NCBI GenBank assembly: GCA_017520425.1
Contig: JAFXFO010000022.1
Location: 124,001 to 188,000, forward strand
Direction of reading: 5' to 3'
Source: Lachnospiraceae bacterium
GTDB lineage: Bacteria > Bacillota > Clostridia > Lachnospirales > Lachnospiraceae
DNA: 64,000 nt
Position 1 is the stretch's first letter; every line of letters begins with the position of its first letter. Both the position numbers and the translations under genes were made by a program. Shown here piece by piece: positions 1,345-50,150 of the stretch. The notes beneath the pieces are model-generated. The model saw nothing but the letters and a program-made list of their open reading frames with translations, was not told the DNA's origin and searched no databases.

Positions 1345-2676
1345 CTATTCTATTCCTAACACTGTGTTTACAAAGTCATATCCGCTTGATTTTACAATAT
1401 AAATAGGGACTTGTAAAGACTTTTCCAAATCAGATTTGGTAAAATCATCTAAAAAAACTTCCTCGCCGCTTCGAAGTACATTCTGAGGCAATAATAGTCC
1501 GGTTCCTAATTCTTTTCCCTTAAGCTGCTTTTCAATATCCTGCCCGGTAAGCAATCCGGAAACCGTAATATGCTCTCCGAAGAAATCATTTACAATCGGA
1601 TAAACATGCACCTTCAAGTTCGGAAAGCTGTCTTCCATCTCATTAATCATTCTTTGAATATAAGGATATGCCAGAAGGCCGGTTGCCAGCGAAACTTCTC
1701 TCTTTATGCTGTCATCCGGTAATATTCTCTCCTCAGCCAGCTTATTCATGCGGTCTGCAAATTCTTCCAATAAAAGTCTGGTCATACCCACACCATTTTC
1801 CAGCTGCAGATATCCGTCATATCTCTCTTCCTCCGGCAATTCTCTTTCCGCCAGAATATACCACTCATCACTGGCATGGATAAAATGCAAACCATGCTCC
1901 GGGTACAATTTCTTCTGCCAGCTTTCAATGGTATCAATTACCTTGTAGGCATCCTCTTTGGTAAAAGGCTCCAAAGGATACAGACCTTCCCGATACTTTG
2001 ACAATCCTACCGGCACTACGGATACACTTTCCAGATGGGGCAAATACTTGGTCAGTTCACGGATGCTGTATTCCAGCTCATCCCCGTCGTTTACGCCCTT
2101 ACATAATACAATCTGACCATTCATGGTGATGCCTGCTTTATAAAGAGTATCCACCTTCTTTAACGCTTCTCCTGCGAAACGGTTGTTCAGCATCATACAA
2201 CGAAGTTTAGGATTCATGGTCTGGAAAGAAATATTGATCGGCGACAAATGATATCTGGTAATCCGGTCAATATCATGGTCTGACATATTGGTCAAGGTTA
2301 CATAATTGCCCTGCAAAAAGGACAATCTGGAATCATCATCCTTGAAATACAGTGTCTCTCGCATTCCCTTGGGCATCTGGTCGATAAAGCAAAAGATACA
2401 TTTATTATGGCAATGTCTGTATTCGTCCATAAGACCGTTTTCAAATTCGATGCCTAAATCTTCATCAAACTCTTTATCAATCTCTAAAAGCCATTCTTCA
2501 CCGTCCGGTTTTTGAATCAGCACCTCAATATAGGTATCCTGCACCAGAAACTGGTAATCAAAAATATCTTCTATCTCTGTATTATCAATGGCTAGTAAAA
2601 TATCGCCTGCTTCTATTTCCAATTCCTCCGCGATACTGCCGGGCAGTACTCGGTTAATGATGTGTTGTTTTTTCAT
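1345..2676 (-). CDS. DUF512 family PDZ/radical-SAM protein
   Basis: 443 aa, the usual length for the family. An N-terminal PDZ-like segment (about residues 1-65) precedes a radical-SAM-type cluster CHNKCIFCF (CX3CX2C, near residue 90) followed by IDQMPKGMR. The C-terminal part is the DUF512 region with the conserved ATG-LAYP-like and TVSGLLTGQD stretches. The family very often sits next to der in Firmicutes, as here with a 34-bp gap, which suggests a ribosome or translation link, but no reaction is established. The start is the ATG at 2676 with an AAGGA about 11 nt upstream. Confidence 0.88.
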   Translation of the reverse strand: MKKQHIINRVLPGSIAEELEIEAGDILLAIDNTEIEDIFDYQFLVQDTYIEVLIQKPDGEEWLLEIDKEFDEDLGIEFENGLMDEYRHCHNKCIFCFIDQMPKGMRETLYFKDDDSRLSFLQGNYVTLTNMSDHDIDRITRYHLSPINISFQTMNPKLRCMMLNNRFAGEALKKVDTLYKAGITMNGQIVLCKGVNDGDELEYSIRELTKYLPHLESVSVVPVGLSKYREGLYPLEPFTKEDAYKVIDTIESWQKKLYPEHGLHFIHASDEWYILAERELPEEERYDGYLQLENGVGMTRLLLEEFADRMNKLAEERILPDDSIKREVSLATGLLAYPYIQRMINEMEDSFPNLKVHVYPIVNDFFGEHITVSGLLTGQDIEKQLKGKELGTGLLLPQNVLRSGEEVFLDDFTKSDLEKSLQVPIYIVKSSGYDFVNTVLGIE

Positions 2677-2697: not shown

Positions 2698-2752
2698 CAG
2701 ACTCGCAAGGACGCACTTGCGTGCTCATTCGTGCTATCGCACTGCCTTGCTC
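2698..2752. repeat. Structured repeat, module A, copy 1
   Basis: 55-bp unit repeated exactly at 2777-2831. It folds as a three-way junction: outer stem GCAAGG (2705-2710) with CCTTGC (2745-2750); arm 1 ACGC/GCGT (2711-2714, 2719-2722); linker CTCATT; arm 2 GTGC/GCAC (2731-2734, 2739-2742). It lies about 22 nt upstream of the DUF512 start on the minus strand. Related elements with different stem sequences lie at 10443 and 52973. Confidence 0.85.
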
Positions 2753-2776
2753 TTATCTTCTGCCTGTCGGTTCAGG

Positions 2777-2831
2777 CAGACTCGCAAGGACGCACTTGCG
2801 TGCTCATTCGTGCTATCGCACTGCCTTGCTC
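2777..2831. repeat. Structured repeat, module A, copy 2 (exact tandem duplicate)
   Basis: Identical to 2698-2752 over 55 bp, at an offset of 79 bp, with a 24-bp spacer. It has the same three-way-junction fold and runs directly into the module B hairpin through CTTGCTCGTTA, exactly as the element at 10443-10555 does. Confidence 0.85.
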
Positions 2832-2833
2832 GT

Positions 2834-2893
2834 TAAACATGTGTTGAAAATTAAATGTCGCTTCGCGCCGCTTAATTTTCCTCCACATGTTTA
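2834..2893. repeat. Structured repeat, module B: long interrupted hairpin
   Basis: Outer stem TAAACATGTG (2834-2843) pairs perfectly with CACATGTTTA (2884-2893). Inner stem GAAAATTAA (2846-2854) pairs with TTAATTTTC (2872-2880). A small apical hairpin CGC-TTC-GCG sits in between, flanked by ATG and CGC. The same layout with different stem bases follows module A at 10501-10555. There is no U-tract, so this is not a simple terminator. Confidence 0.8.
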
Positions 2894-2909
2894 TCATACA
2901 AGAAAAACC

Positions 2910-9829: not shown

Positions 9830-10420
9830 TTACTTAATAAAGCCGATTTTGTCCGTCTCACTTTCTCCGTGAAGCCAGGCTTTTCCTACGATATCTTTAA
9901 TCTTCACCGGCCCTACATTGGCAGAACGGCTGTCTTCGCTGTTGTTTACATTGTCGCCCATGCAGAAAAACTCTCCACTCTCTAAAGTAAACTCTACCTC
10001 CGCGATACCGGCTTCCTTTATCTTTTCTGTCACATATTCACTCTTCTTGCCGTTTACATAGCAAATTCCGTCCTCTATGAGTACCGTATCCTTAGGACCT
10101 GCAATCACTCTTTTCACATAAAAATGGGTGTTCTGATTGCCTTTTGGCAAAAACACCACCACGTCTCCGGGCTTCGGATTACTTAGGGTGTATGCAAATC
10201 GGTTCATATAAATGGTCTGTCCGTTACTTAATGTGGGTTCCATAGAAACACCAATTACACTGGTGGACATACCAAAGGTATAGGTCAGGATACCTGCCAG
10301 AAAAACCGCAAATACAGCAATAAAGAAATAGGAAAACACTTCCTTCACGACAGACATATTTATTTTTTTCTTTCTCTGATAAAAGGTCAGGCCTTTATAT
10401 TTTCGTTTTCTTCTAGCCAT
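9830..10420 (-). CDS. lepB: Signal peptidase I (second copy)
   Basis: 196 aa. A very basic N-terminus (MARRKRKYKG) and one membrane segment (about residues 27-50) precede the nucleophile box GVSMEPTL, the base box FYVKRVIAGP and GDNVNNSEDSR. GAGGAAAACA precedes the ATG. Its leader carries the structured repeat at 10443-10555, after the rplS terminator. That separates it transcriptionally from rplS even though gene order is conserved. Confidence 0.95.
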   Translation of the reverse strand: MARRKRKYKGLTFYQRKKKINMSVVKEVFSYFFIAVFAVFLAGILTYTFGMSTSVIGVSMEPTLSNGQTIYMNRFAYTLSNPKPGDVVVFLPKGNQNTHFYVKRVIAGPKDTVLIEDGICYVNGKKSEYVTEKIKEAGIAEVEFTLESGEFFCMGDNVNNSEDSRSANVGPVKIKDIVGKAWLHGESETDKIGFIK

Positions 10421-10442
10421 TGTTTTCCTCTATCCTTCAAAT

Positions 10443-10555
10443 ACTCGCAAGCACGCGCTAACGCGCTTATTGCCCGCTTCGCGGGCTGCTTGCTCGTTAT
10501 CACGGCACAAAAACAAATGCCGGCTATGCCGTCGCTTGTTTTTGTGCTCGTGTAC
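10443..10555. repeat. Structured repeat, modules A+B, second locus
   Basis: Same architecture as 2777-2893. Module A has outer stem GCAAGCA (10447-10453) / TGCTTGC (10487-10493), arm 1 CGCG-CTAA-CGCG (10454-10465), linker CTTATT, and arm 2 GCCCGC-TTC-GCGGGC (10472-10486). CTTGCTCGTTA is followed by module B, a long stem with GCACAAAAACAA against TTGTTTTTGTGC and an apical GGC-TAT-GCC hairpin flanked by ATG and CGC. It starts 23 nt upstream of the lepB start. Stem bases differ from the first locus but pairing is kept. Confidence 0.85.
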
Positions 10556-10580: not shown

Positions 10581-10611
10581 AAAAGGACAACTACCAAAAA
10601 GTAATTGTCCT
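10581..10611 (-). terminator. Intrinsic terminator of rplS
   Basis: On the minus strand AGGACAATTAC pairs with the AGGACAACTAC side (10584-10594 / 10601-10611), with one G-U or mismatch position, followed by TTTTC. It lies 13 bp after the rplS stop. Confidence 0.75.
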
Positions 10612-35131: not shown

Positions 35132-35328
35132 CCTTTGTAGCCCCAAAATGTCGGCTCTTGCCTTTTGACTCCTAGCTATGCTAGGTGGGTGACCGCAACC
35201 TCGCTTTTGCCTTCCCCTGGCGTCTTCTTACGAAGGGGGGCTTGACAGCCACGCGGCGATATAGGAATCCCGTTTAAAGTAAATGTAGGTTCAAAACTAA
35301 CAAGAGTTATCGAACACTTCAGGTTACC
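35132..35328 (-). ncRNA. ssrS: Probable 6S RNA
   Basis: About 195 nt with its own strong promoter and terminator and no open frame. The ends pair: 5' GTAACC...TGTTCG with 3' CGACA...GGGGCTAC, then CTCTTG with CAAGAG, giving a long irregular rod. The middle includes GTTTTGAACCTAC and an apical CCCCCTTCGTAAGAAG segment. Length, rod shape with a large central bubble, and isolated transcription fit Firmicute 6S RNA, which binds sigma-A holoenzyme. The assignment is by structure and recollection of clostridial sequences, not a covariance search. Confidence 0.7.
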
Positions 35329-49806: not shown

Positions 49807-49813
49807 CCCTAGA

Positions 49814-50150
49814 TGGAGTAGACGGGAGTCGAACCCGTGTCCAAAAGCCCATTCCCTGTACTTCTACGAGTGTAGTTAATCCTTTGACATTCCCTCTACG
49901 CCCCGGGGATTAACACCCTGACCGCTTCAGTAGCTTCATGATACGCCCATAGGCTCAAAGCTTTGCCCATGTCGTTTCCTACATAGTCGAAGCCCGGGTC
50001 CTAATGTGTAGGTGCACTAGGTCGGACTACTGCCATTAGGCAGCGATTGCTAAATTATCTTCAGCGTTTAATTTTAATTTTGCCATTTGACGCATTGCAT
50101 GCGACTCGCTTCTCCAGCTGCAAGACCCCTGTCGAAACCTTTACTACCCC
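49814..50150 (-). ncRNA. ssrA: Transfer-messenger RNA
   Basis: About 337 nt on the minus strand. The acceptor stem 5' GGGGTAG pairs with CTACTCC (one G-U) and the T arm GGGTTCGACTCCC is present. The encoded tag reads AKLKLNAEDNLAIAA then TAA, with the degradation-type hydrophobic end. The terminal CCA is not fully encoded. Rescues stalled ribosomes together with SmpB, encoded just upstream on the same strand. Confidence 0.96.

What the first reader, a model, noticed from the sequence alone, without database searches (positions are those of the whole stretch)
10443..10555. Second locus keeps the fold while every stem changes sequence
Seen: compared with 2777-2893, outer stem, both arms, linker (CTTATT vs CTCATT), the CTTGCTCGTTA hinge and the ATG/CGC-flanked apical hairpin of module B are all in the same order, yet stem bases differ on both sides together. 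Compensatory change over several helices indicates selected structure in DNA or RNA. Both loci sit about 22 nt 5' of a minus-strand start codon, so a role in mRNA leaders, or a mobile element that targets them, is possible.
Basis: partly seen in the sequence, partly recalled or inferred. Interest (0 to 1): 0.8.

Follow-up and report, generated by a model that had tools for sequence, protein, structure and literature searches.

The report
Mobile structured repeat in gene leaders
The stretch is one copy of a repeated, folded genetic element found in many places in a group of related bacteria; it nearly always points towards the gene that follows it and keeps its fold while its sequence changes.

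Summary
10443-10555 and 2777-2893 are two copies of one element, read on the minus strand: a long hairpin (B), then a three-way junction (A) whose basal stem carries a tandem G.A motif. In 76 distinct aligned matches 94.8% of stem cells pair and 35 of 40 pairs change on both sides; no shuffle reaches this. It is not a fixed leader: of 30 genomes of the genus examined, own included, 2 have it between rplS and lepB. Genes behind it share no theme. In tandem gene contexts it points with transcription 61 to 1; 81 of 128 copies begin at a -10-like box; partial self-copies lie 3' of elements (44 of 123), not 5' of single ones. Module A also occurs inside a ~164-bp miniature transposon with 8-bp target duplications. 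No transposase was identified; Y1_Tnp, the RAYT-type family, shows no association. Nothing in Rfam passes its cut-off in the window here. Best reading: a MITE-like, transcribed repeat, structured in mRNA leaders and intercistronic spacers. Its effect on expression is untested.

The parts
10443..10497 (-). module A of the copy at hand: three-way junction, CGAG/CGAG tandem G.A in the basal stem, arms 10472-10486 and 10456-10465
10501..10552 (-). module B: long hairpin with conserved AAGC/ATTT segment
10556..10561 (-). -10-like box TAGAAT directly 5' of module B; a promoter-like box stands at this place in most relatives without the element (by eye)
10427..10434 (-). Shine-Dalgarno-like stretch between element and lepB
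   Evidence: by sequence
9830..10420 (-). lepB-like gene (signal peptidase I; name recalled from the sequence) behind the element
10581..10611 (-). terminator-like hairpin behind rplS (gene name recalled), upstream of the element
2835..2892 (-). module B of the second window copy
2780..2833 (-). module A of the second window copy
2760..2779 (-). short hairpin between the two A modules
2701..2753 (-). second, tandem copy of module A
2893..2898 (-). -10-like box TATGAT at the 5' edge of the second copy
1345..2676 (-). gene behind the second copy (DUF512-type, recalled)

Best explanation
A lineage-specific, non-autonomous, MITE-like mobile repeat of two modules that is transcribed in the sense direction as part of mRNA leaders and intercistronic spacers. 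It sits mostly flush against a -10 box, less often against a stop codon or a T run. Its fold is kept by selection on the transcribed strand, most clearly in module A. I infer that as RNA it gives the mRNA a structured 5' end or spacer that affects decay or processing, as reported for NEMIS and ERIC repeats, and that it moves by a transposase supplied in trans. Shown: repeat family, covariation, empty sites, orientation, edge position, and mobility of module A in one relative. Inferred: transcription itself, RNA as the selected form, effect on mRNA, trans mobilisation of the B-A form.
For: Covariation; matches in 28 of 61 genomes, 26 of 37 in the genus (some of these are module A in another carrier); 28 of 30 rplS-lepB sites without it; ++ 61, -- 1, -+ 20, +- 3, unclear 48 of 133; -10-like box at 81 of 128 element edges against 135 of 1266 control windows, exact TATAAT 54 against 13; module A basal helix 10 G.U, 0 A.C, all A helices 24 against 9 in a fitted alignment (my sum); tandem G.A closed by standard pairs on both sides in 101 of 108 parsed; module A in a MITE with 8-bp duplications, 4 of 8 distinct copies exact; diverse genes behind it, 120 reading frames listed.
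Against: No conserved terminal repeat and no clean target duplication seen for the B-A form itself. No transposase identified: Y1_Tnp patchy, none of 7 IS66-type loci carries the MITE ends; other transposase families were not searched. In 31 of 128 copies the outer B stem overlaps the last four bases of an exact TATAAT, so a transcript from that promoter would lack part of the 5' arm; that stem cannot be selected only as leader RNA. G.U pairs are very few, unusual for RNA (recalled). On the reverse strand 64 of 128 edges also hold a loose -10-like box, but only 4 an exact one. No expression data. 20 of 128 copies sit at none of the three edge types.
Confidence: 0.55

Rival explanations
1. Single-stranded DNA or cruciform element: the fold matters in DNA, as the substrate of an enzyme that recognises hairpins (in the manner of IS200/IS605 or REP/RAYT), and position next to a fixed oligonucleotide reflects target choice.
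For: Outer B stem overlaps the -10 box and is almost perfectly Watson-Crick (1906 of 1953 cells, G.U 13, A.C 9; the parse rewards such pairs); insertion next to TATAAT-like sequence.
Against: Y1_Tnp shows no association with the element; orientation follows transcription 61 to 1, more than leading-strand gene bias alone should give (recalled); module A mismatches favour the sense strand.
Confidence: 0.2
2. A cis-regulatory leader RNA (riboswitch-like or protein-binding) controlling a regulon, copied to many genes because it is useful.
For: Nearly always upstream and in sense; two structured domains with conserved non-canonical motifs.
Against: Genes behind it have no common theme; elements also lie between ribosomal protein genes and right after stop codons or T runs; many tandem and broken copies.
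Confidence: 0.12
3. The compensatory changes come from copying, not selection: hairpins are perfected or renewed by template switching or gene conversion, so covariation is a mutational product.
For: Few G.U intermediates; frequent near-identical local partial copies (44 of 123); orthologous loci L163 and L170 share module B and differ in module A.
Against: The AAGC/ATTT segment, with its facing G.U and C.A, is kept in 126 of 128 parsed B stems (the parse itself requires AAG and TTT), and the tandem G.A in 101 of 108 parsed A modules; a perfecting process should remove such mismatches.
Confidence: 0.13

Closest known systems
Clostridiales-1 RNA (Rfam RF01699)
   Same: Multi-copy in the same genus (38 matches in G006, which is all 38 candidates scored), a TGAG/CGAA tandem G.A in a helix, a -10-like box at the 5' edge in 22 of 40 copies against 44 of 390 control windows (exact TATAAT 6 against 4), partial self-copies downstream 10 of 37, upstream 0.
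   Different: Different architecture (four-way junction with a GUGCUUGCAC hairpin); our element scores below its cut-off (best seen 28.4 against 48 bits); its orientation bias is weak (++ 11, -- 5).
MITE with ends GTAACAGTTCAGCC in G023, G035 and G006
   Same: Carries a recognisable module A with tandem G.A; G029 holds related copies without the GTAA ends.
   Different: Has terminal repeats, 8-bp target duplications and no module B; ends and duplication length recall IS66-type elements (recalled, not tested).
NEMIS/Correia and ERIC repeats
   Same: Small mobile repeats whose transcribed hairpins are reported to act on neighbouring mRNA (passages of PMC2229807).
   Different: Conserved terminal repeats, other hosts, stem-loops formed by pairing of the two ends (same passages); no two-module fold of this kind.
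REP/BIME with RAYT
   Same: Intergenic palindromic repeats in many copies (recalled).
   Different: No association with Y1 transposase genes; two different modules, not inverse pairs of one hairpin.

Membership tests
Clostridiales-1 (RF01699) | score at or above the gathering cut-off of 48 bits | tested here: not met
   no match in window; among the loci scanned L112 28.4 bits, L108 23.3 bits
Clostridiales-1 (RF01699) | four-way junction closed by a terminal stem | tested here: not met
   B-A folds as hairpin plus three-way junction, unlike
MITE | conserved terminal inverted repeats | tested here: not met
   outer B stem varies between copies; TA at both ends in 66 of 128
MITE | target site duplication | tested here: inconclusive
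   none evident for B-A; seen for the relative that carries module A, 4 of 8 exact
MITE | filled and empty orthologous sites | tested here: met
   rplS-lepB 2 of 30 filled, proS 3' end 2 of 30 with full element
MITE | autonomous partner with the same ends | tested here: inconclusive
   PF03050 in 3 of 12 genomes, 7 places, no MITE ends in those loci; other transposase families not searched
REP/RAYT | REP-associated Y1 transposase in genomes that carry the repeat | tested here: not met
   one Y1_Tnp in the own genome without element near it, but patchy in the genus and absent from G018 and G022
cis-regulatory leader RNA | consistent sense position 5' of genes | tested here: met
cis-regulatory leader RNA | shared function of regulated genes | tested here: not met
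   list of 120 downstream reading frames, names recalled
cis-regulatory leader RNA | change of expression with a signal | not testable with these tools
   no expression data

The most novel reading that the evidence does not exclude
The outer stem is made with the insertion site. The 5' arm belongs to the target (a -10 region or the last codons of a gene) and the 3' arm is its inverted complement, either copied from the target on insertion or used as a base-pairing guide to choose it. Such an element would move through a sense-strand folded intermediate, which would also fit the one-sided 3' partial copies. At the 3' end of proS (name recalled) the 5' arm of the stem in G007 and G008 is coding sequence for a C-terminus of the type KKMVYWGRAY that all 30 genomes read share; 26 of these show no element there by eye, and an Ala third-position difference between the two goes with a matching difference on the 3' arm. 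Several Clostridiales-1 copies likewise start on a stop codon with a matching 3' arm (by eye). Against it: stems of the TAATGAGCGC type recur at unrelated promoters (7 of 31), so there the element seems to bring its own arm.
Probability: 0.15. Interest if true: 0.88.

Novelty: new variant of a known kind. Interest (0 to 1): 0.6.

Why it matters
It shows that a structured module with strong covariation, of the kind usually filed as a candidate regulatory RNA, is shared by different mobile carriers; Clostridiales-1, an Rfam sRNA family, behaves alike and in one genome has transposon-like ends. That changes how such motifs should be read. It also offers a testable case of a repeat that sits at transcription-unit edges in one orientation and leaves copies on one side only, habits I do not recall for known bacterial MITEs.

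Tried and rejected
RAYT link: rejected. IS66 partner: none with the ends among 7 loci. Known Rfam family: none at cut-off in the window; weak Clostridiales-1 similarity only. Spread by plasmids or phages: no plasmid match, no viral contig with the core pattern, three unannotated faecal 'Bacteriophage sp.' records at 75-76.5% identity, one looked at. Variable-length target duplication as the general explanation of the flanking copies: rejected, because many of the copies run into the element's own core. A first stem parse overran the stems and was replaced by a stricter one; the numbers are not used. An earlier, cruder gene-direction count over 67 copies gave downstream 55 with and 7 against, upstream 48 with and 19 against; one search replaced it. 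The order-wide scan scored only 12 candidates per genome, so its 6 of 295 is a lower bound.

Rows dropped before counts: 67 of 78 matches were used, 67 of 84 (weak, one-sided, overlapping or doubly held ones left out by hand); 1 near-identical copy removed, leaving 133. One search parsed 128 of 133; one search used 123 of 128; one search parsed module A in 108 of 128. For Clostridiales-1 I fetched 40 places from the listed matches, mostly the best. The rplS and proS comparisons use the 30 loci given, of 37 and 40 genomes with a match; the rpsK loci were fetched but not compared.

Papers: listings; passages only of PMC2864571 and PMC2229807. No description of this element was noticed in those listings, which cover open-licence papers only.

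Full report
What was checked. The two window stretches were read and folded. On the minus strand each is module B, a long hairpin, followed by module A, a three-way junction. Module B carries a segment AAGC/ATTT in which a G.U and a C.A face each other; it is present in 126 of 128 parsed copies (the parse requires AAG and TTT, so only the last letters are free). Module A has a basal stem with NGAN on both sides, that is a tandem G.A, closed by standard pairs on both sides in 101 of 108 parsed copies. The copy at hand lies between the rplS terminator and a lepB-like gene; the other lies in front of a DUF512-type gene, with a second A module in tandem (gene names recalled).

Family. A covariance model built from four own-genome copies finds 20 places in the own genome at E <= 1, 13 of them at E <= 0.001, tandem neighbours included. 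It finds matches at E <= 0.01 in 28 of 61 related genomes, 26 of 37 in the genus, and in 6 of 295 genomes of the order under a much reduced search. Some matches in G023, G029 and G035 are module A in another carrier.

Structure. Over 76 distinct rows the model structure pairs 94.8% of cells and 35 of 40 pairs show changes on both sides; neither shuffles nor slid partners come near. Orthologous pairs show the same: for example L087/L088 differ by paired changes in the B stem, the B apex and an arm of A (by eye; that output was cut, so not all 27 pairs were seen). G.U pairs are rare. In a parse that treats G.T and A.C alike, the basal helix of module A has 10 G.U and 0 A.C, module B 13 and 9. 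In the fitted alignment the A helices give 24 and 9 and the well-aligned B helices, without the fixed G.U, 15 and 11 (my sums). This favours the sense strand for A and says nothing for B. The numbers are small and the copies related.

Place. Gene directions could be called on both sides for 85 of 133 copies: ++ 61, -- 1, -+ 20, +- 3. For 40 Clostridiales-1 copies the same test gives ++ 11, -- 5, -+ 7, +- 4, 13 unclear, so the bias is not a property of every repeat in these genomes. A -10-like box ends within 10 nt of the first stem base in 81 of 128 copies, against 135 of 1266 upstream control windows; exact TATAAT 54 against 13. The same window on the reverse strand gives 64 of 128 for the loose box but 4 of 128 for exact TATAAT, so the exact count is the better one. 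Of the other 47, 17 begin near a stop codon of a long upstream frame (control points: 48 of 600) and 10 at a T run; 20 fit none.

Mobility. Between rplS and lepB 2 of 30 genomes carry the element (own and G003); the other 28 do not, by eye and by the model over the fetched loci, and a promoter-like box is recognisable in most of them. At the 3' end of proS 2 of 30 carry it (G007, G008) and two more show remnants by eye (own L383, G032 L401), of which the model sees only L401; it also sees a B core in L382, away from that site. Module A lies in a ~164-bp element with ends GTAACAGTTCAGCC: 8 distinct copies held, exact 8-bp duplication in 4, 7 of 8 in two, 6 of 8 in one, 1 of 8 in one (whose 13 rows count both strands). 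Clostridiales-1 copies of G006 that carry the end TGATGCC have matching ends and exact 5-bp duplications in 5 of the 7 that the script could delimit. For the B-A form itself I found neither conserved ends nor a clean duplication.

One-sided copies. Of 123 elements 44 have a >= 95% identical copy of >= 15 nt of themselves within 150 nt downstream; 3 have one upstream, and these three are later members of tandem arrays. Family likeness alone gives matches between unrelated loci at the looser threshold (86 of 381, against 70 of 127 for the element's own downstream side). Clostridiales-1: 10 of 37 downstream, 0 upstream. I cannot explain the polarity.

Function. The genes behind the element include lepB, gyrB, rpsK, rpsD, thrC and a CYTH protein (names recalled from the sequences). 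I see no regulon. By analogy with NEMIS and ERIC (passages of PMC2229807) I take an effect on mRNA decay or processing as the most likely consequence, and selfish spread as the reason for its number. The overlap of the outer B stem with the -10 box in 31 copies means that this part cannot be explained by the leader RNA from that promoter; DNA-level recognition or read-through transcription must be allowed for.

Novelty. The Rfam family nearest to it is Clostridiales-1, listed in 2010 as probably an RNA and probably not cis-regulatory (passage of PMC2864571). The present element is not a member by score or architecture but shares some of its habits. I rate it a new variant of a known kind: a MITE-like structured repeat with unusual orientation, placement and one-sided copies.

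Noticed in passing
L337, L339, L340, L342, L343 (G006): Clostridiales-1 (RF01699) copies are part of a ~196-bp element with inverted ends TGATGYCRGGGTCAAAAG; exact 5-bp target duplications in 5 of 7 copies delimited.
   Followed up: partly
L348-L351, L354, L355 (G006): Clostridiales-1 copies that start on the stop codon of the upstream gene, with the last codons pairing with a locus-specific 3' arm (by eye).
   Followed up: partly
L417-L422 (G023), L052 (G035), L041 (G006): Miniature transposon with ends GTAACAGTTCAGCC that carries module A; exact 8-bp duplications in 4 of 8 copies.
   Followed up: partly
L110:594-759 -: TwoAYGGAY RNA, 97.5 bits, near a related element.
   Followed up: no
window 49811-50150 - and 35136-35328 -: tmRNA and 6S RNA.
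   Followed up: no
MT835743.1 16011-16128: A copy at 76% identity in an unannotated faecal 'Bacteriophage sp.' record; could be host sequence.
   Followed up: no
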